The notes beneath the pieces are model-generated. The model was not told where the DNA came from, searched no databases, and worked only from the letters and a program-made list of their open reading frames with translations. Source: an uncultured Pedosphaera sp. (lineage in GTDB: Bacteria; Verrucomicrobiota; Verrucomicrobiia; Limisphaerales; Pedosphaeraceae). Taken from it: 64,000 bases of DNA. A program made the translations under genes and the position numbers. Shown here in pieces: positions 11,346 to 27,742 of this stretch. The first letter of the stretch is position 1. Each line of letters begins with the position of its first letter. The DNA lies in contig CAIXFN010000052.1 in assembly GCA_903918755.1 (NCBI GenBank), positions 1-64,000 of the forward strand. The letters are read 5' to 3'.

Positions 11346-14108
11346 ATGAACACAATTTCTGCACCGCTTTCGAACGCCGAATTGGATGCGGTGGCCGTGG
11401 AAGCGGTCAAGCACGGCGATGGCGAGCGCTATCGCGAATTGGTGGAGCGCTACGAACAAAAGGTTTACGCGGTGGCCTGGTGCCGGCTCGGCAATCCGGA
11501 TCTGGCCCGCGAAGCCACCCAGGAAGCCTTCATCAAGGGGTACCGGCAACTGGCCTTCCTCAGTCAGGGCGGCAAGTTCGCCGCCTGGATCACCGCCATT
11601 GCGCGGAACGCCGCCATCAATCTCGGCATCCGGCAGCGCAATGACCTGAAGAAGCATGCCCGCTGGGCCCTGGAAACGGCCCCCACGCCCGAGGCCGCGC
11701 TCCCCGAGGAACCGTTTTCCCCGCAATCCCTTAGCACCGCCCTGGCGGCACTCCCCGCGCACCACCGGGAATCGCTGGTGTTGTTCTACCTCGAGGGGAA
11801 AAGCATCACGGAAGCGGCCGCCAGCCTGGGAGTTTCCGAAACCGCCTTCAAGACCCGCCTGCACCGCGCGCGGGGCATCCTGCGGGAGCAATTGGAGGAC
11901 GGCCTGGGCGAATCGTTGGGCCGCCTGCGGCCACGCCACGCACTCGCGCCGGGAATCATGGCCCTGCTGGCCACGACCCGGGCGGAGGCGGCCACCGCGG
12001 GAACGGGAATCGCCGGCAAACTGCTGTTGGGGACCGGAAAGCTGCTACCCCTGCCACTAATGACCGCCTGCGCGGGCCTGGCGGGAATCATGCCCGGCGC
12101 GCTACTGGCCTACCGGCTGGGAAAAATGGAACAGCGAAATTACCGCGAGCCGGGCGGCTTCCGGGTGGCCCTGCACCAAGCCGGTTTGCGCCGTGCCCTG
12201 CTGACCATTCCCCTCCTGGGTCTGGTGGTTCTGGCGCTCAGCCAGGGTACCATCACCCGTTGGGGCCTGACGGAGTTCTCCCGGGCTTGCGGACTTTTAT
12301 ACCTCGGCTGGCTTTTACTCGTGCTGGGCCCGTTGTGGCGCAATCGCAATCCGTTCCTGGCCTGGCAATACGCCGCGATCTCGCTGCTAGTGGCGGCCTT
12401 CCTGGGGGTCGGTTTCTTTCACCTGCCCATGGGGGCGTTTTCGATTTTTCAGGGTCTGTTTTTTGTCCTCTGCGCGTTTTCGCTCCGGCACCAACCCCTG
12501 CGGATGGATTACAATCTGTTCCTGCGCGCGCGGGAAAACCTGCTGCCGCCGGTCACGGACGAGCCACCGCCGGCGCGACCGTTTTCGCGATTGGAACTCC
12601 GGCTTTTCGCCCGGTTTCTCTGTCGGCGCTGGCTGGCGATCAATTACCGCGAGACCGCCGACGGGATGCAGTTCCGCCTGCCGCAGGTCCGGCCCGGTCG
12701 GTGGCGGGAGCTCGCGTTTCCCTTTCTCTGGCGCCACGCCTCCACGATCGCCATCGGTTGGGATGGTGAAATTAGCGCCACCTTGGGCCGGGCCGACTAC
12801 GGGGATCTCACCGGTGCCCCGCCAACTGCGGAAACCTTGACCCCGGCGGTCATTGGGGCGGTGAGAAGCGCTTTGGCGGCCTTGCTCACGGGAGACGTGC
12901 CGCGCGCCGAAGCCGTGCTGGGCCACCAACCTGAGGCGGAGATTTTCCGGCGACCGTTGGCACAATCCCGGGGCATCCGGTTACGATTCGCCCTTTTGCT
13001 CATTGCCGGCCCCCTGATCGTGGGCCTAAACCTGATCCCCTGGTGGCTTAGTCGCCCCCACAGTTGGCTGGCCCCGGTGAGACTGTCGGAAGCGGATGTT
13101 CGCGCCATGCTCGCCGAACCGCATCGGGTCCGCTGGGAGGCGCTGTCCTCTCCCGGGGAGGGAAACTTTTGGCTGCTCCAGACGGATCCGCCGAAAAGCC
13201 TGCTTTCCCCGGAGGTTTGGGCGGGAATGCGGGAGGACATCTGGCAGCAGCTGTTGGGAACGAATTTGTCCACCGCCATCGCTGCGGGTCGCCCGACCAT
13301 GGCACTCTTGGATCAACCGGCCTTGCAACGGGCGTATTTGAGCGGGCTGTTCACCGACGCGGATTTGAAATCCTGGGGCATAACGCCGGCGCAAATACGT
13401 CAGGAATTGTTGGGGCTATCAGCGGGCCGCGCCGTACAGTTGCTGCAACTCAAGCCAATAGTCATCGAGCCCCCGGCGGCGTCCACCCAGGCCGGCACCA
13501 ACTGGAATTATCTTCCGGTGGACCGCTTCGCCCCGTTCCTGCAGGCGCTGGAACGGTTCCATTGCCTCGATTTGATCGAGTCCAAGCCGATCATTGAGAC
13601 CCTGCGGGCGCAACAGGTCCGTCCGGGAAACACTCTCGCAGGTTATTCCCTGGTAGCGGATCTGGACGCGGCGGATGGTCTCTTTCACTGTGCTTACAAC
13701 CGGCCGCTCAAAGACACCTATGAGGCGTTGGTGATCCTGTCGCTGCTACACGGACTGGATGCCATCGATCAACCGGCGTGCATTCGGGGCATCCTCCGTT
13801 TGCACCGGGGCGGGGGCTGGTTTGCGCGAGTCAATCCGAGTGGGGATATGTATCTTCCCGGGGATGCGTCGGATACTTTCTTCGCCTACGAATCACTGCG
13901 GTTGCTCCACGCGCTGGATCAGGTACCGGATTTGAAGCGCTGGAAATTCCGGCCTGGGATAGAAGCGCCCCCAACTGGGGCAGGCCGGTCGGCGGGCATC
14001 ACCTGGAGCCAGGTGGAAGCCTGGCTTTACCAGCAGCGTCTGCAGCATTATCTGGAAGCGCGACGGCGGGATCTCAGGGTGACGGCCCCGTCTTTGCAAA
14101 CTCCATAA
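11346..14108 (+). CDS. ECF-type sigma factor fused to membrane and toroid-like domains
   Basis: A 920-residue protein. Residues 1-190 are a complete ECF sigma-70 module: region 2 includes ERYEQKVYAVAWCRLGNPDL, ATQEAFIKGYRQL and WITAIARNAAIN, and region 4 includes LAALPAHHRESLVLFYLEG and VSETAFKTRLHRARGILREQ. From about 205 to 385 several hydrophobic helices follow (MTACAGLAGIMPGALLAYRL, LLTIPLLGLVVLAL, LLYLGWLLLVLGPLW). Another hydrophobic helix is near 560 (FALLLIAGPLIVGLNLIPWW). The last 200 residues contain helical repeats like those of prenyltransferase/squalene-cyclase toroids (DTYEALVILSLLHGLDAI, RLHRGGGWFARV, DTFFAYESLRLLHALDQ). The protein is probably a membrane-tethered sigma factor whose extension senses a signal. 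No separate anti-sigma gene is adjacent. The continuous frame and coherent domains argue against a frameshift artefact. Confidence 0.85.
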   Translation: MNTISAPLSNAELDAVAVEAVKHGDGERYRELVERYEQKVYAVAWCRLGNPDLAREATQEAFIKGYRQLAFLSQGGKFAAWITAIARNAAINLGIRQRNDLKKHARWALETAPTPEAALPEEPFSPQSLSTALAALPAHHRESLVLFYLEGKSITEAAASLGVSETAFKTRLHRARGILREQLEDGLGESLGRLRPRHALAPGIMALLATTRAEAATAGTGIAGKLLLGTGKLLPLPLMTACAGLAGIMPGALLAYRLGKMEQRNYREPGGFRVALHQAGLRRALLTIPLLGLVVLALSQGTITRWGLTEFSRACGLLYLGWLLLVLGPLWRNRNPFLAWQYAAISLLVAAFLGVGFFHLPMGAFSIFQGLFFVLCAFSLRHQPLRMDYNLFLRARENLLPPVTDEPPPARPFSRLELRLFARFLCRRWLAINYRETADGMQFRLPQVRPGRWRELAFPFLWRHASTIAIGWDGEISATLGRADYGDLTGAPPTAETLTPAVIGAVRSALAALLTGDVPRAEAVLGHQPEAEIFRRPLAQSRGIRLRFALLLIAGPLIVGLNLIPWWLSRPHSWLAPVRLSEADVRAMLAEPHRVRWEALSSPGEGNFWLLQTDPPKSLLSPEVWAGMREDIWQQLLGTNLSTAIAAGRPTMALLDQPALQRAYLSGLFTDADLKSWGITPAQIRQELLGLSAGRAVQLLQLKPIVIEPPAASTQAGTNWNYLPVDRFAPFLQALERFHCLDLIESKPIIETLRAQQVRPGNTLAGYSLVADLDAADGLFHCAYNRPLKDTYEALVILSLLHGLDAIDQPACIRGILRLHRGGGWFARVNPSGDMYLPGDASDTFFAYESLRLLHALDQVPDLKRWKFRPGIEAPPTGAGRSAGITWSQVEAWLYQQRLQHYLEARRRDLRVTAPSLQTP

Positions 14109-14141: not shown

Positions 14142-15971
14142 TCAGGATGACGTATTTTCTTCCTGCTGCAATTGGCCGCGAATGCTCATGATCATTTTAC
14201 CGATGGCGTTGAAACTGGTTCCCCTCCGTTCCAGCCAATACGAATCGCAGTTAGCATCGGAGATCAGCCTGGCATTTAGCGTGGCCAGCAGTTGCTGTTT
14301 CAACCCGAGGTTTTGTTGAAATTTGGCCAACAATGCGGCGCGCATGACGGCATCAAATGTGGCTGGCCAATGGGGACCAGGTTTGATCCCCGCATCCTGG
14401 AGGAGCGCTTTGGCGGCAGCAACGCTGGGAGTCCGGCGGACCCGCTCCCGTAATCGCGGGTCGGTGGTCTTTTGCGCATGGAAATAATGCATGCTGGAAG
14501 GCCAGAAGTCTCCATCCAGTTCAAAGCCGATCATCGCTGTCGGCAAAAATCCCAGGTAGGCCTCGGCACCCAGCCAGAGGAATCCGTCAGTCTGGGGCAA
14601 AGCCGGATTGAGCAATTCCAGATATTCATCGGGATAACGATAATCGGTCGCCAGACCAAACGCCGTCTTGCCGGCCTGGTTCATTTTCCAGAGATCTGCT
14701 CCGGCGGAAACGAGGGCTAAAAATGACGGAAATTCGACATCCGGACGGAATTCGTCGCTGAAAAACAGTCGGTGTAACGGCATGTTGCCGTCGTGGTCGC
14801 AGAGATTGACGGAAGCGCCGGCTTGCAGCAAGGCATGGATCGACGAGTGCGCCGCAGCGGAAGCCGCCAGATGGAGCGCCGTCCGCCCTTCGCCATTGGG
14901 TTCGTCGACTGGCAAACCCAACCGCAATACCAACTCCAGGCGGGTAGGATCCGCGGCAACGGCATGAAGCGCACCGTCGCCTTGGTGGTTGTGCGCTTGA
15001 GCGTTGGCACCCCGATCAAGCAAGATTGCGGTGGTTTCGGAGTGGCTCAACGCCACGAGCAACGGCGTATTTCCGGCATCGTCCAATTGTTCAATATCTG
15101 CCCCATGATCCAGCAGCCAGGCCACCACATCCGGGAGGTTACTGGAGGCGGCTGCATGCAATAATCCGGTGGTCTCCGGGTCAAATGTCAAACCCTCGGC
15201 CACGAGTCGGTTGGCCGTCGCCAGATTTGATCGTTCCAAGCATGTTTCAAACAGGGCCGCGGTTTCAGCTTGCGAAAGTGGCCTGATGAGGGCGCCATGT
15301 TTACAAAGCAAGGTCACCATTTCCGGTGGTCCGTGCTCTACTGCGTGCCGGAGGATCGAGACGTGGTGGCGATCCACCGCGGCAATATCCGCCTGGTGCT
15401 GGAGCAGGAGTTCGGCGCACTTCAGATAGCGTGGTTTTCCCCGAAGATCATCCGCCATTTCCGGATCCAAGGCGTCCAAATCAATTCCCCGGGCAGCAAT
15501 CTCATCCAGGAGTTGCTGGGGATTGGCCAGACAGTCCCAAGCGGCAGTGAACACGGCAGCATCAAATTCCGCCGGAAGATCATCCCCGGCTTCCAGTTCG
15601 GAAGGAATGCTGGCATCCTTGGTCTTGATGATTTCTGCCAGGACCTTGGCAACTGCAGGCGGGGTGGAGCGACGGCGATGACGGGAGGGATTCAGGGCGT
15701 GAAGATCCGGATCCAGCAAATCGAGCCCCCGACCATATGCGGCGGCCAAATGCAATGGTGTCTGGCCAGTGTGCAGCCGGCCATTCACATCCGCACCCGC
15801 GTCGATCAGGATGCCCGCCGATAAAAGGTCGCCGTCCTCGGCTGCCGCATGCAGGGCGGTGCGCCCGGATTCCGTGCTGGGCGTTACCCCATACTTTCCG
15901 ATCAACTTGCGAAGCCAATCGTGGCGGCGGGTCCGGACGGCGAATATTAATCGTTGAGCGGGCGTGGGCAC
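14142..15971 (-). CDS. Ankyrin-repeat protein with C-terminal NADAR/YbiA-like domain
   Basis: A 609-residue cytoplasmic protein. Residues from about 35 to 460 contain many ankyrin repeats, recognisable by GRTALHAAAEDGDLLSAGIL, GQTPLHLAAAYG, GNTPLLVALSHSETTAIL and GRTALHLAASAA. From about 470 the sequence follows the NADAR/YbiA pattern: FELDGDFWPSSMHYFHAQK, then PHWPATFDAVMRAALLAKF, LLATLNARLISDANCDSYW and FNAIGKMIMSIRGQL. In E. coli YbiA the segment reads SEHYFQAQKF with Glu48 in the active site; here that Glu is Met494 (codon at 14490-14492), while the Trp of KNW is kept as HW. NADAR proteins are N-glycosidases acting on riboflavin precursors or ADP-ribosyl adducts; this one may be altered or inactive. 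It converges with the sigma fusion gene, with 33 bases between them. Confidence 0.8.
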   Translation of the reverse strand: MPTPAQRLIFAVRTRRHDWLRKLIGKYGVTPSTESGRTALHAAAEDGDLLSAGILIDAGADVNGRLHTGQTPLHLAAAYGRGLDLLDPDLHALNPSRHRRRSTPPAVAKVLAEIIKTKDASIPSELEAGDDLPAEFDAAVFTAAWDCLANPQQLLDEIAARGIDLDALDPEMADDLRGKPRYLKCAELLLQHQADIAAVDRHHVSILRHAVEHGPPEMVTLLCKHGALIRPLSQAETAALFETCLERSNLATANRLVAEGLTFDPETTGLLHAAASSNLPDVVAWLLDHGADIEQLDDAGNTPLLVALSHSETTAILLDRGANAQAHNHQGDGALHAVAADPTRLELVLRLGLPVDEPNGEGRTALHLAASAAAHSSIHALLQAGASVNLCDHDGNMPLHRLFFSDEFRPDVEFPSFLALVSAGADLWKMNQAGKTAFGLATDYRYPDEYLELLNPALPQTDGFLWLGAEAYLGFLPTAMIGFELDGDFWPSSMHYFHAQKTTDPRLRERVRRTPSVAAAKALLQDAGIKPGPHWPATFDAVMRAALLAKFQQNLGLKQQLLATLNARLISDANCDSYWLERRGTSFNAIGKMIMSIRGQLQQEENTSS

Positions 15972-16174: not shown

Positions 16175-17071
16175 CTAAACACGGGCCAGTTCGGCGCGGA
16201 TTTCGCGCACCATCGTTTCCAGGCGTTTGCCGTATTCGACAAAGTTGGCACGGGTGAGGTCTTCCGAAACGGTTTTGTTCTGGGCGTCGTGAAAGACCAC
16301 CACCATGTGGGGTTCGATGGAGATGCCGCCGTCATAACCATGCGCCAGGGCGTCCTTCAGGATCGCGCGGACCTGGCCCTGGCCTTCGCCGGGCCAGTTG
16401 TAGTCGGCATCATTTTTGGCCGGCACCCAGGTGGCATCCTTCACGTGAATGTGAACCACGTGGTCGCGGACATGGGTCCAGAACTCCCACGGATCCTGCC
16501 GGTGCCAGGGCTTGGGTCCCCGCCGGTCGGGATTGAAAACCGGGTTGGCGGTGTCAAAAACCAATTTGAGCCCGGGGCACTGCTGGAGCAGTTCCAGGGT
16601 GTGCTCCCAGCTCATGCCGCCGTAGTTCATGCAATTCTCATGCACGGGCTGGATGCCGGCGTCCAGAAAGCGCTGCGTCACTTCCCGCACGCGCTCAAAC
16701 ACCACCGCGGGGGTCCGCTCCTCGTCCTCGCCCGGTTTGAAACTCATGATCCGGACATACTTCGTGCCGAGTCGTTGCATCCGCGGAATGGCGCGGCCCA
16801 CTTCCCCCAGCGTCACGTCAAAGGGAGTCGCCACCGTCTTGGCCCAGTTCATCACCCCGGAGCCGAAGCAGCAGACTGAGATCCCGGCCGCGTTGACCTG
16901 CTCCGCGAACAAATCAAAGGCGGCGTCCGGGATTTCATGAACGTTGCCCTTGGGAAAGCCGGGCAACTGCGCGAAGCGGGCTTCCAGATGCCGCCAGCCG
17001 AGCTCCCGCAAGGCGGCAATTTGCGTGGTGACCAGGGCGCCCGCCTCATCTCCGATTCCGGTAAAATACAT
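16175..17071 (-). CDS. Sugar phosphate isomerase/epimerase-type TIM-barrel protein
   Basis: A 298-residue protein of the xylose-isomerase-like / AP endonuclease 2 superfamily. The start at ATG 17071 is chosen because longer versions run into the upstream dehydrogenase gene. Candidate metal ligands are visible in order: Glu in PVHENCMNYGG, Asp in LVFDTANPVFN, His in VVHIHVKDATW, and Glu in GGISIEPHM. These proteins epimerise or isomerise free or phosphorylated sugars or inositols; the exact substrate cannot be read from the sequence. It follows the Gfo/Idh/MocA gene by 25 bases, and such pairs commonly form sugar or inositol catabolic units. Confidence 0.85.
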   Translation of the reverse strand: MYFTGIGDEAGALVTTQIAALRELGWRHLEARFAQLPGFPKGNVHEIPDAAFDLFAEQVNAAGISVCCFGSGVMNWAKTVATPFDVTLGEVGRAIPRMQRLGTKYVRIMSFKPGEDEERTPAVVFERVREVTQRFLDAGIQPVHENCMNYGGMSWEHTLELLQQCPGLKLVFDTANPVFNPDRRGPKPWHRQDPWEFWTHVRDHVVHIHVKDATWVPAKNDADYNWPGEGQGQVRAILKDALAHGYDGGISIEPHMVVVFHDAQNKTVSEDLTRANFVEYGKRLETMVREIRAELARV

Positions 17072-17096
17072 AAGCTGGGGGAAAGTTCGCCGCCGG

Positions 17097-18251
17097 TCAG
17101 CGTTTGAAGGAACTGGTGAAATCGTCGGTGGTGACCGCCACAACCTTTTTCTGCATTTTGGAGCCGGCGATCAGTTGCTTAAGTTTCCGTTCGTAGGCGG
17201 CGCTGCTCATCGGCAGCTGGACGGTTTTGTCGATCAGCGAGGAATAGAGCATCACGTTCGCGAGTTCGACCGAGTGCAAGCCCTCCACCCCGGGAGCGAT
17301 CAAAGGTTCGCCGGAGCGGATGGCATTGACGAAATTTTGCATCAGCAGGGCATGCGGCGCGGAGGCGTTCGTGATCGGGATGTCCACCTGCCAGACTTCC
17401 GGTTTCGAGAATCCAACCTTGGCGGTTTTCGAGAAATCAGTCATGGGCACTTCATTCCGCGTGAAATGCAACTGATCATTTTCGAGGACCAGTTTGCCGC
17501 GCGTGCCGGCGATCTCCAACCGATTCGTCCCCGGCGCCTCGCCGGTGGAGGTGATGAACACCCCGGTCGCGCCACCCGGAAACTCCAGATAGGCGGTGAC
17601 ATTGTCCTCGACTTCGATCTTGTGGTAGCGCCCCAACTGGCAGAACCCGCGCACACTTGCCGGCATGCCGCAGAGCCATTGCAGGACGTCGAGATTGTGG
17701 AGGCACTGGTTGAGCAACACGCCGCCGCCCTCCCCCCGCCAGGTGGCCCGCCAACCGCCGCTGGCGTAGTAGGCCTCAGTGCGGTACCAGTCGGTCATGA
17801 TCCAGGAGATGCGGGCCAATTCGCCCAACTCGCCGTCCTGGATGAGCTTGCGGATCTTTTGATAACGCGGTTCCACGCGGAGCTGGAACATGCCGCCGAA
17901 AACCAGTTCCGGGTGTTTGCGATGGGCGGCGATCAGGCGTTCGGCATCGGCTTTGTGGGCGGAAATCGGCTTTTCGACCATTACATGCAGGCCGTTTTCC
18001 AAGGCGGCGATCCCGAGGGAGGTATGCTGGTAATGCGGCGTGGCGATCAGGACAGCATCCAGAATCCCGGCGCGGATCAGGCGCAAGCCGTCGTCATAAA
18101 CCTTCAACGGCTGATAGCCTTCCAGCTTGCCCGGGGAGGTGCTGCAAACGGCGACCAATTCGCAGTGACTCACCTTGCCCGCCATCAGGTAAGCTGCGTG
18201 GTGCTTGCCGATGTTGCCCATGCCAATGATGCCGATGCGCACTTTGTCCAT
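17097..18251 (-). CDS. Gfo/Idh/MocA family NAD(P)-dependent dehydrogenase
   Basis: A 384-residue cytoplasmic oxidoreductase. The N-terminal Rossmann fold shows GIIGMGNIGKHHA. The conserved EKPIS motif carries the catalytic Lys94. The C-terminal alpha/beta domain has GGGVLLNQCLHNLDVLQWL with the usual His, and EFPGGATGVFITSTGEAPG. No Tat signal is present, unlike many exported members in this phylum. It is the first gene of a two-gene unit with the downstream sugar isomerase-like gene. Together they probably oxidise and isomerise a sugar or cyclitol, but the substrate is not deducible. Confidence 0.88.
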   Translation of the reverse strand: MDKVRIGIIGMGNIGKHHAAYLMAGKVSHCELVAVCSTSPGKLEGYQPLKVYDDGLRLIRAGILDAVLIATPHYQHTSLGIAALENGLHVMVEKPISAHKADAERLIAAHRKHPELVFGGMFQLRVEPRYQKIRKLIQDGELGELARISWIMTDWYRTEAYYASGGWRATWRGEGGGVLLNQCLHNLDVLQWLCGMPASVRGFCQLGRYHKIEVEDNVTAYLEFPGGATGVFITSTGEAPGTNRLEIAGTRGKLVLENDQLHFTRNEVPMTDFSKTAKVGFSKPEVWQVDIPITNASAPHALLMQNFVNAIRSGEPLIAPGVEGLHSVELANVMLYSSLIDKTVQLPMSSAAYERKLKQLIAGSKMQKKVVAVTTDDFTSSFKR

Positions 18252-25579: not shown

Positions 25580-27742
25580 TTAGCGCCCGCGGGCGGCGCG
25601 GTAGAGGCGCAGTTGGTCGTACTCGAAAGCGTCCCCCAGCAATTCCCGGGCGCCGGTGAGGTTGGCCGGGCCGCAGCGTTCCAACGCATCGCCGATCCGC
25701 CGCTGTTGCTCGGGTGTCAGGAGTTGATTGAGATCCAATTTCTCCCCGGCCTCCAGCGCGGCGACCAGGTGTCCGTAAATGGTGCCGGTGGTCAGGCCGC
25801 GGTTGGCGGCCACCTGCGCCACGGACCGGCCCTGCCGGACGCTTTGCACACTGAGGGCAATGGTATCGCTGATGCGCGGCTTGGCTGGCGGCGGGGCGGT
25901 GAAGGAATCATCGGCAAACATCTGGCGCGGATTGACGGTGAGATGGGCCGCGATTTCCGCCAGGAAAATGTCGCCAAACTCGCGCAGCTTTTTCTCGCCC
26001 ACGCCCGAGATGCGCGCAAAATCGCGGGCCACGGCGGGGTATTCGCGGGCCATTTGCCGCAACGCCACATCGGAAAAGACAATATACGCCGGCAGGTCGC
26101 GTTCGTCGGCGAGGCGTTTGCGCAGGAGCCGCAATTTTTCGAACAACAGCTCGTCGCAGGCAATTTCGCCGGCCCGGGGCGCGCGCGCCTCGCCCGGAGC
26201 CACCGGACGGGTGAGGGTCACTTTTTGCCGCTGGGTCAGCACCGCCCGGCCTTCCGGAGTCAGTTCGAGCGTGCTGAACTTTTCGGTGGATTGGCGCAAA
26301 AACCCCAGGCGGATCAATTCGCGGCCAATCGCCCCCCACTCGGCGCGATGGTGCTCCCGGCCAATCCCGTAAGTGGAAAGCTGGGTATGGCCCCAGCGGC
26401 GGATCTTGTCGGTGTCCGCGCCCGTCAACACCTCCACGACATGGTTCAAGCCCACGCCAAACTGGCTGCGTTCGCGGATGCGGTAAACACACGAAAGGAA
26501 TTTTTGGGCCGCCAGCGTGCCGTCATACGTGGCCCGCGGTGAGAGGCAGTTGTCGCACGCCCCGCAATTGTCGGTGGTGAAATCCTCGCCGAAATACCCC
26601 AGCAACTCGGCGCGGCGGCAGGTGCCGGACTCGGCATAGTGCACCATCTGGCGCAATTGCTCCCGGGCGATCTGCTGCTCCTGGGGATCGGGCTTTTCCT
26701 CGATGAACTGCGTTTGTTTCGCCACATCGCCCGGGCTGAACAGCAGCAGGCATTCCGCCGGCAGACCGTCCCGCCCCGCGCGCCCGGTCTCCTGATAATA
26801 GCCCTCCACATTTTTGGGCAGATCGTAATGGATGACGAAGCGGACGTTCGGTTTGTTGATCCCCATGCCGAAGGCGATGGTGGCGCAGACCACGCGGATT
26901 TCATCGCGCAGGAATAATTCCTGGTTGCGGCCGCGCTCGTCCCCACTCAACCCGGCGTGGTAGGCACGGGCCTTCACCCCGTCCGCATTCAGGCGTTGGG
27001 CGACCGTTTCGGCGGATTTCCGACTGTGGCAATAAATGATTCCCGATTCGCGCGGTCGCCGACGGATGAATTCCAGCGCCTGGTCGTAGGGACCCGATTT
27101 GGCGAGGACGCGGTAGGTCAGGTTCGGGCGGTTAAAGCTCGCCACAAAACAGGAGGGCTCCCGCAGTTGCAGGTGCTGGACGATGTCCGCCCGCACGCGA
27201 TCGGTGGCGGTGGCGGTCAGGGCAATGACCGGGACGTCGGGGAAATGGGTGCGGAGTTCCGCCAGTTGCCGGTACTCGGGCCGGAAATCATGACCCCACT
27301 CGCTGATGCAGTGGGCCTCATCCACGGCCAGGAGGGTGACCTGCCAGCGCTGCAAGTCGCTGATCATGCCGGAAAGCATCAGGCGCTCGGGGGCCAGGTA
27401 GAGCAACCGGTATTCCCCCTGGTGCAAGCCGCGGAGACGGACCCGCGCCTCGCCGGGCGGGAGGGAGGAATTCAAAAACGTGGCGGCAATGCCTGCCGAC
27501 TGCAAAGCGTCCACCTGATCTTTCATCAGGGCGATCAAAGGGGAGACGACCACGGTGAGGCCGGGCCGGGCCAGGGCCGGCAATTGGAAGCACAGCGACT
27601 TGCCGCCCCCGGTGGGCAGTAAGGCAAAGACATCCCGGCCCGCCAGGGCATCGCGGATGATCTCCTCCTGCAAGGGCCGAAAGGAGCGGAACCCGAAGTA
27701 TTGCTTCAGGAGCGGCAACAAATCAGGTTCACCGGTCGGCAT
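25580..27742 (-). CDS. recQ: ATP-dependent DNA helicase RecQ
   Basis: A 720-residue RecQ helicase with the full bacterial layout. Helicase core: Walker A LLPTGGGKS (residues 41-49), VVVSPLIALMKDQVDAL, the DEAH box in AVDEAHCISEWGHDFRPEY, FNRPNLTYRVL and ATIAFGMGINKPNVRFVIHY. The zinc-binding part of the RQC region has Cys residues in GTCRRAELLGYFG and NCGACDNC. An HRDC domain (RKRLADERDLPAYIVFSD, ARISGVGEKKLREFG) is followed by an extra C-terminal helix-turn-helix-like region (GRSVAQVAANRGLTTGTIYG). It unwinds 3'-5' at replication and recombination intermediates. The length is somewhat above E. coli RecQ because of the extra C-terminal region. Confidence 0.95.
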   Translation of the reverse strand: MPTGEPDLLPLLKQYFGFRSFRPLQEEIIRDALAGRDVFALLPTGGGKSLCFQLPALARPGLTVVVSPLIALMKDQVDALQSAGIAATFLNSSLPPGEARVRLRGLHQGEYRLLYLAPERLMLSGMISDLQRWQVTLLAVDEAHCISEWGHDFRPEYRQLAELRTHFPDVPVIALTATATDRVRADIVQHLQLREPSCFVASFNRPNLTYRVLAKSGPYDQALEFIRRRPRESGIIYCHSRKSAETVAQRLNADGVKARAYHAGLSGDERGRNQELFLRDEIRVVCATIAFGMGINKPNVRFVIHYDLPKNVEGYYQETGRAGRDGLPAECLLLFSPGDVAKQTQFIEEKPDPQEQQIAREQLRQMVHYAESGTCRRAELLGYFGEDFTTDNCGACDNCLSPRATYDGTLAAQKFLSCVYRIRERSQFGVGLNHVVEVLTGADTDKIRRWGHTQLSTYGIGREHHRAEWGAIGRELIRLGFLRQSTEKFSTLELTPEGRAVLTQRQKVTLTRPVAPGEARAPRAGEIACDELLFEKLRLLRKRLADERDLPAYIVFSDVALRQMAREYPAVARDFARISGVGEKKLREFGDIFLAEIAAHLTVNPRQMFADDSFTAPPPAKPRISDTIALSVQSVRQGRSVAQVAANRGLTTGTIYGHLVAALEAGEKLDLNQLLTPEQQRRIGDALERCGPANLTGARELLGDAFEYDQLRLYRAARGR

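What the first reader, a model, noticed from the sequence alone, without database searches (positions are those of the whole stretch)
14142..15971. Ankyrin-NADAR fusion in which the conserved glutamate is methionine
The C-terminal domain follows YbiA/NADAR closely, but the SEHYFQAQ motif reads SMHYFHAQ (Met494). NADAR enzymes have been linked to riboflavin-intermediate hydrolysis and to reversal of ADP-ribosylation; loss of the Glu in an ankyrin-linked version suggests a binding-only or altered role, such as reading ADP-ribose marks on targets chosen by the ankyrin repeats.
Basis: partly seen in the sequence, partly recalled or inferred. Interest (0 to 1): 0.7.

Follow-up and report, generated by a model that had tools for sequence, protein, structure and literature searches.

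The report
Ankyrin protein with degenerate NADAR tail
One bacterial genome carries an ankyrin-repeat protein with a changed copy of a known enzyme domain at its end; both acids that the enzyme's chemistry relies on are gone, so it is probably no longer that enzyme, which is a modest curiosity rather than a new system.

Summary
ORF 14142-15971(-), 609 aa, has ankyrin repeats and a C-terminal NADAR domain (Pfam E 2.3e-14); the motif Glu is Met494 (ATG; at least two base changes from a Glu codon). Published mutants make the second loss the more telling one. Of 205 other NADAR rows aligned, 200 have Glu at the first site and one lacks both acids. Further conserved sites are changed, while K501, W535, D576 and W579 remain. 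A relative in the same order has a 477-aa orthologue of the ankyrin part (40% identity) that ends where NADAR would begin; no second ankyrin-NADAR fusion was found among the frames examined. Most likely a lineage-specific fusion whose tail keeps the NADAR fold (predicted) but not the hydrolase activity (inferred). An ADP-ribose reader is not excluded but not supported: 8 of 13 named ligand-site residues are changed, and no DarT or macrodomain was detected in the genome. New variant of a known kind; low-to-moderate interest.

The parts
14142..15971 (-). Whole gene: ankyrin-repeat protein with C-terminal degenerate NADAR domain, 609 aa, GTG start
   Evidence: the start is supported by the orthologue that begins MPTHAQRLIFSVR
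14586..15971 (-). Ankyrin-repeat part, residues 1-462, orthologous to a stand-alone 477-aa ankyrin protein in G216 (40% identity)
14169..14516 (-). NADAR domain as matched by Pfam PF08719 (residues 486-601); the fold model matches YbiA over residues 456-609 of the protein
14490..14492 (-). Met494 (ATG) at the position of the conserved Glu (P. nicotianae E43, E. coli C7 E88)
14259..14261 (-). Ser571 (TCC) at the position of the second catalytic acid (P. nicotianae E125, E. coli C7 D171); Asp572 follows
14469..14471 (-). Lys501, retained (P. nicotianae K50, E. coli C7 K95)
14235..14246 (-). Asp576 and Trp579, retained (P. nicotianae D130, W133)
14367..14369 (-). Trp535, retained (P. nicotianae W89)

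Best explanation
A lineage-specific gene fusion. An ankyrin-repeat protein that stands alone in a relative carries here a YbiA-type NADAR domain as a C-terminal tail. The tail is predicted to keep the NADAR fold but has lost both acids that hold the distal ribose (E to M494, E to S571) and several other conserved residues, so it is most likely not a NADAR hydrolase. What is left would be a binding or scaffolding tail on an ankyrin protein, its ligand unknown; if it binds anything small, the retained K501, W535, D576 and W579 suggest a phosphate-bearing ligand. Shown: the fusion, both substitutions, the NADAR-less orthologue, and that a predicted model matches the NADAR fold. Inferred: loss of hydrolysis, continued translation and usefulness of the tail, the direction of the change (gain here rather than loss in the relative), and any ligand.
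For: Both acids changed in alignments without gaps at either site. First acid: Glu in 200 of 205 other rows (48/53, 80/80, 72/72; the other 5 are 2 gaps, L, N, K); second acid: Glu in 190 of 205 (42/53, 80/80, 68/72); both Glu in 186 of 205, and only L073 lacks both as this protein does. Mutants of the second acid lose efficient hydrolysis. 10 of 23 columns at least 95% conserved are changed here, and none of the 90 other rows was listed as departing at 4 or more of them; 25 of 51 columns at least 80% conserved are changed, against 0-17 in the 90 others. End branch 4.93 changes per column against a median of 0.43. Model pLDDT 86.5, VIA Z 18.9 to YbiA 2b3w and 16.3 to 8bau. Frame kept: one single-residue gap against YbiA over 132 residues and no stop, which pure decay would hardly give (inference). 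Orthologue without NADAR: G216, E 2.5e-91 over residues 1-462, and no significant NADAR profile match on its 6.8-kb contig (best E 0.51).
Against: No activity was measured. Asp572 stands next to Ser571, and the loop after it is the less confident part of the core model (block means 75 and 73), so a shifted acid is possible; in DarT1-linked NADARs the working acid is an Asp two residues from the aligned Glu. Retention of the family's commonest residue, set against its frequency, is about flat across conservation classes (13/23, 13/28, 12/23, 7/30, 7/36), which fits general relaxation and gives no sign of selection on special sites. Only one genome has the fusion, so no test of selection was possible.
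Confidence: 0.6

Rival explanations
1. The NADAR tail is an active enzyme with altered chemistry or substrate: Asp572 takes over from the lost Glu, and Met494 is tolerated as Ala is in E. coli C7 NADAR.
For: [quoted passage not shown] Lys501, Trp535, Asp576 and Trp579 are retained. The SNA-3 paper speaks of four residues critical in YbiA; from the homologues it mutated (Glu, Asp, Trp; Trp, Asp) I infer Glu, Trp, Asp, Trp, of which three are kept here (passages).
Against: Both acids and several further conserved sites changed together; the Asp is one residue further at a strand end, which would normally point it away (inference).
Confidence: 0.17
2. The tail is an evolutionary relic: a fused NADAR that is drifting and does nothing, the ankyrin part being the functional protein.
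For: A relative has the ankyrin part alone; long branch; flat retention across conservation classes.
Against: No stop and only one single-residue gap against YbiA although about two thirds of the aligned residues differ; the fold model is confident (though its alignment of intact relatives helps that).
Confidence: 0.13
3. One reading: a non-hydrolytic reader of ADP-ribose marks on targets chosen by the ankyrin repeats.
For: Predicted fold and four of six pyrophosphate-contacting residues retained (K501, W535, D576, W579); an inactive NADAR could still bind.
Against: 8 of 13 named residues around ADP-ribose changed (mapping), both distal-ribose acids among them; no DarT or macrodomain detected in the genome (other transferases were not searched).
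Confidence: 0.07
4. Immunity-type, defence-type or effector-type protein: ankyrin repeats are known as immunity modules (Imm-ank) and in toxin proteins; the tail would help to block or hold a partner.
For: Imm-ank is described in PMC3482391 (passages). PADLOC's candidate model PDC-M72A matches residues 186-335, ankyrin repeats (E 3.1e-29), and PDC-M42C weakly matches the NADAR part (E 0.00048).
Against: Ankyrin repeats match many models; NCBIfam's ankyrin effector models (best 84.7 bits against 600) and its NADAR anti-phage model (19.1 against 240) stay far under their cut-offs. No toxin was recognised among the neighbours scanned: a TIM barrel, a Gfo/Idh/MocA protein, a sigma-factor fusion and a rhodanese and ten further window ORFs.
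Confidence: 0.03

Closest known systems
E. coli YbiA (PDB 2b3w), YbiA family of NADAR
   Same: Predicted fold (VIA Z 18.9, 33% identity); one single-residue gap over 132 residues
   Different: Both acids replaced (M494, S571); changes in FSNF, LGR, RxDW and GxGxN; fused behind ankyrin repeats
Phytophthora nicotianae NADAR with ADP-ribose (PDB 8bau)
   Same: Predicted fold (VIA Z 16.3); K50, K75, W89, D130 and W133 equivalents kept
   Different: E43, G78, R79, V81, Y84, D86, R93 and E125 equivalents changed
G216 stand-alone ankyrin protein (477 aa, same order)
   Same: 40% identity over residues 1-462 including the start
   Different: Ends after the last ankyrin repeat; a likely start of the next gene lies about 14 bases on
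Nematode SNA-3 NADAR domain 1
   Same: A NADAR domain in a larger protein in which the residues critical in YbiA are not conserved (passages of PMC9303266)
   Different: Nematode trans-splicing protein with three NADAR domains; no ankyrin repeats mentioned in the passages seen

Membership tests
NADAR domain (Pfam PF08719) | Profile score over the curated cut-off | tested here: met
   54.4 bits against 35.1
NADAR domain (Pfam PF08719) | YbiA fold | tested here: met
   On a predicted model only: pLDDT 86.5; YbiA Z 18.9, rmsd 2.8, 154 aligned; 8bau Z 16.3, rmsd 2.4, 150 aligned
YbiA-family NADAR hydrolase | Conserved Glu of the SEHYFQAQK motif | tested here: not met
   Met494
YbiA-family NADAR hydrolase | Catalytic Glu (Asp or His in sister groups) of the last strand, E125/D171 | tested here: not met
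   Ser571; neighbouring Asp572 not excluded as a substitute
YbiA-family NADAR hydrolase | Lys of the motif (K50/K95), and the Trp, Asp and Trp of the pocket | tested here: met
   K501, W535, D576, W579
YbiA-family NADAR hydrolase | Hydrolysis of ADP-ribosyl guanine or riboflavin intermediates | not testable with these tools
   Needs purified protein
Riboflavin biosynthesis intermediates N-glycosidase (NCBIfam TIGR02464) | Score over the curated cut-off | tested here: not met
   48.7 bits against 73.7
DarT1-NADAR antitoxin (DarTG1) | Linked DarT gene | tested here: not met
   No DarT match in the genome, which is 96.9% complete
Ankyrin-repeat protein | Several ankyrin repeats by profile | tested here: met
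   Ank_2 E 1.4e-31, five stretches

The most novel reading that the evidence does not exclude
A NADAR pseudoenzyme has been made into a ligand- or partner-binding module steered by ankyrin repeats: four of the phosphate-facing residues are kept while the two acids at the distal ribose are gone, so the domain would sense a phosphate-bearing compound or an ADP-ribosylated target without cutting it.
Probability: 0.15. Interest if true: 0.6.

Novelty: new variant of a known kind. Interest (0 to 1): 0.33.

Why it matters
The NADAR papers seen here (passages or one section each) stress conserved catalytic residues and activity across the superfamily. A natural bacterial NADAR with both acids gone, fused to ankyrin repeats, is a clean case for asking whether the fold can serve without hydrolysis, as non-hydrolysing macrodomains do (recalled). 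It is one gene in one genome, so the weight is limited.

Tried and rejected
Tried without result: peptide-pattern scans with the window domain alone in genome contigs and viral contigs confirmed no relative. A profile search of the G216 contig for a hidden NADAR remnant found nothing significant. G109, G129 and G162, which matched the ankyrin part at 31%, appear from the ends of their frames to be another kind of ankyrin protein. The full-length model was poor in the ankyrin part (mean pLDDT 63.7, pTM 0.41), so nothing is said about how ankyrin repeats and NADAR pack. Third-position G+C is lower in this gene (0.63 ankyrin part, 0.64 NADAR part) than in the four neighbours tried (0.75-0.79), a hint of foreign origin or weak codon bias, not followed. 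tblastn of the whole protein in phages and plasmids gave ankyrin-only or NADAR-only places, none covering 80% of it.

Rejected: a single sequencing error (at least two changes needed for Met, three for Ser571 TCC from GAA/GAG); chance similarity (Pfam, phmmer and fold agree). Met as a trait shared by ankyrin-linked NADARs could not be tested (no second fusion found). Beyond the three NADAR entries Foldseek listed nothing under E 1.8 and VIA-align 2 nothing over Z 2.9 for the NADAR model.

Limits of the counts. The 53 rows from the genome search are those for which searches gave a locus, minus the window's own, and include fragments (L030 and L031 are identical; also L057, L064, L065, L066, L074, L075); L023, L026, L033 and L036 (halves of interrupted genes) and the matches listed without a locus were left out. 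Of 80 viral loci 72 were used and 8 look-alike copies dropped; one of the two patterns in that scan also demands E or M. The tree had 132 rows after dropping 10 fragmentary or degenerate rows (L073 and L076 among them), all but 9 viral rows and one duplicate; the place of the window's long branch is unsure. Long frames not scanned with Pfam, and so not excluded as fusions by profile: L048, L051, L071, L075 and L076 (301-344 aa, stop to stop) and the shorter ones.

Print: searches for NADAR with ankyrin (44 papers hold both words; the 20 listed were seen as titles and abstract starts), DUF1768 with ankyrin (0), ankyrin with YbiA (0) and pseudoenzyme with NADAR (4) showed no paper on an ankyrin-NADAR fusion or a NADAR pseudoenzyme in what was listed. 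Only open-licence PubMed Central papers are held; the founding NADAR survey of de Souza and Aravind (named in PMC11543638; title recalled) was not seen, nor was its list of domain fusions.

Full report
What is there. The minus-strand frame 14142-15971 encodes 609 residues from a GTG start. Pfam finds ankyrin repeats (Ank_2 E 1.4e-31) and a C-terminal NADAR domain at residues 486-601 (E 2.3e-14). It is the only NADAR match at E 0.001 in the 7.19-Mb genome. The start is supported by an orthologue that begins with nearly the same residues. The gene converges with a sigma-factor fusion (11346-14108, +) and lies about 200 bases downstream of a TIM-barrel gene on its own strand (16175-17143, -); no clear operon partner is seen.

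The observation. Met494 is encoded by ATG at 14490-14492 and sits in SMHYFHAQK, aligned without gaps to the SEHYFQAQK of E. coli YbiA. A profile of 91 rows (the window's domain and 90 relatives) aligns both YbiA and the Phytophthora nicotianae NADAR 8bau. Counting along that alignment, with an offset of two between chain and paper numbers, ties the site to E43 of that structure and so to E88 of E. coli C7 NADAR as described in PMC11543638 (section 12 read; passages).

The second loss. The same alignments put Ser571 (TCC, 14259-14261) at P. nicotianae E125, equivalent to D171 of E. coli C7. [quoted passage not shown] substitutions at E88 and D171 and K95R failed to rescue cells from DarT1. So Met494 alone would not settle the matter, but Met494 with Ser571 makes hydrolysis unlikely (inference). 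The paper names 13 residues around ADP-ribose: kept here are K50 (K501), K75 (K521), W89 (W535), D130 (D576) and W133 (W579); changed are E43 (M494), G78 (L524), R79 (Q525), V81 (A527), Y84 (K530), D86 (G532), R93 (F539) and E125 (S571). G78 and V81 contact the ligand by their backbone, the paper says of K75 that it does not touch the ligand directly, and V81, Y84 and D86 also differ in YbiA, so this count is not all loss. Of six pyrophosphate-contacting residues, K50, W89, D130 and W133 are kept and R79 and R93 changed.

How unusual. In an alignment with 205 other NADAR rows (53 from whole-genome profile searches in the order, class and phylum; 80 from genome contigs; 72 viral), Glu stands at the first site in 200 and at the second in 190; both in 186. 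Only L073, a short protein in another genome of the phylum, lacks both. The genome contigs rows and part of the viral rows were chosen by a pattern allowing only E or M there, so the 48 of 53 from profile searches is the fairer figure; its five misses are two gaps and an L, an N and a K, the N and K in broken or fragmentary rows. Against 90 relatives the window protein departs at 25 of 51 columns that are at least 80% conserved; the others depart at 0 to 17. At the 23 columns at least 95% conserved it departs at 10, and no other row was listed with 4 or more: S476L, N477P, F478T, E494M, Q498H, G524L, R532G, E571S, G586S, L590I (family residue, number in this protein, residue here). These comparisons lean on relatives that were picked for likeness and by the motif. 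Its end branch is 4.93 changes per column against a median of 0.43, inside a 55-row set of YbiA-type rows (99/97), with the tool's warning about long branches.

Fold. AlphaFold2 on residues 440-609 with 90 relatives gives pLDDT 86.5 and pTM 0.81; the loop after Ser571 is the less sure part of the core. Foldseek finds 2b3w (E 6.1e-10) and 8bau (E 1.7e-6); VIA gives Z 18.9, 16.3 and 9.3 for 2b3w, 8bau and 8bat. The alignment of intact relatives helps such a model, so it shows that the sequence is compatible with the fold, not that it is stable.

Where the fusion comes from. In the order sample (284 genomes), G216 has a match over residues 1-462 with 40% identity (E 2.5e-91). Its protein is 477 aa, Pfam finds ankyrin repeats and no NADAR in it, and it ends where the NADAR would begin, with a likely next start about 14 bases on. 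By its handle number G216 was also in the NADAR sample, and it is not among the 19 genomes with a match there. In a class sample of 236 genomes only one other genome passed E 1e-18 with the ankyrin part, and only over residues 278-443. Counting the window's own genome, NADAR occurs in 1 of 8 genomes of the family, 19 of 293 of the order sample, 29 of 384 of the class sample and 18 of 387 of the phylum sample. No other ankyrin-NADAR fusion was seen: nine long genome contigs frames and one viral frame and seven long frames from the genome searches have other partners or none by Pfam; five further frames of 301-344 aa and the shorter ones were not scanned. With two ankyrin orthologues the direction (gain here or loss in G216) cannot be fixed.

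Is the tail used? For: no stop and one single-residue gap against YbiA over 132 aligned residues, although about two thirds of the residues differ. Against: retention of the commonest residue is 13/23, 13/28, 12/23, 7/30 and 7/36 from the most to the least conserved class, where that residue's mean frequency is 0.99, 0.86, 0.68, 0.48 and 0.30, so relative to expectation it is about flat, as general relaxation would give. No selection test was possible with one sequence.

Mechanism. I take the tail to be a NADAR fold without hydrolase activity, serving at most as a binding or scaffolding part of an ankyrin protein (0.6). Other ADP-ribosyltransferases were not searched. A shifted acid at Asp572 could restore some activity (0.17). 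A drifting relic is possible (0.13), an immunity or defence role less so (0.03).

Known context. PMC11125620 (passages) states wide conservation of catalytic residues and activity of the E. coli host and phage NADARs characterised there. PMC9303266 (passages) reports that NADAR domain 1 of nematode SNA-3 lacks the residues critical in YbiA, a precedent for a NADAR domain without them. PMC9503650 (passages) and PMC10789625 (passages) describe NADAR as an ADP-ribose-processing domain. PMC3482391 (passages) lists ankyrin repeats among immunity proteins and as repeats in toxin proteins. No paper on an ankyrin-NADAR fusion was seen in the listings.

Noticed in passing
L077:4344-8150 (G435, same class): NADAR at the N-terminus of a 1269-aa protein with a DUF1156 match, in a row with a helicase-like and a 365-aa gene (judged by eye); looks like a defence or modification operon.
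   Followed up: partly
L078:2651-4801 (G295, same phylum): NADAR fused to a type I restriction specificity (Methylase_S) protein, with a methylase-like gene and a gene like the 365-aa neighbour of L077 upstream (by eye). Two methylation-linked NADAR fusions in one phylum may be a pattern.
   Followed up: partly
L085:2737-4632 (Methyloceanibacter superfactus): NADAR followed in one frame by MASE7 and an adenylate/guanylate cyclase domain.
   Followed up: no
L073, minus-strand frame of 202 aa (G307, same phylum): A second NADAR lacking both acids (Leu and Tyr at the two sites), between two genes whose repeats look like Sel1 repeats (repeat name by eye and recall).
   Followed up: partly
L061:301-1905 (G367, same class): NADAR behind a phytase-like esterase domain in one open frame.
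   Followed up: no
window 11346-14108, +: 920-aa protein with an ECF-type sigma factor at the N-terminus and a long C-terminal part that looks partly hydrophobic (by eye) with a weak prenyltransferase-toroid match.
   Followed up: no
window 25580-27742, -: 720-aa protein scoring 798 bits to a PADLOC DpdF model; perhaps a RecQ-type helicase (recalled), not checked further.
   Followed up: no
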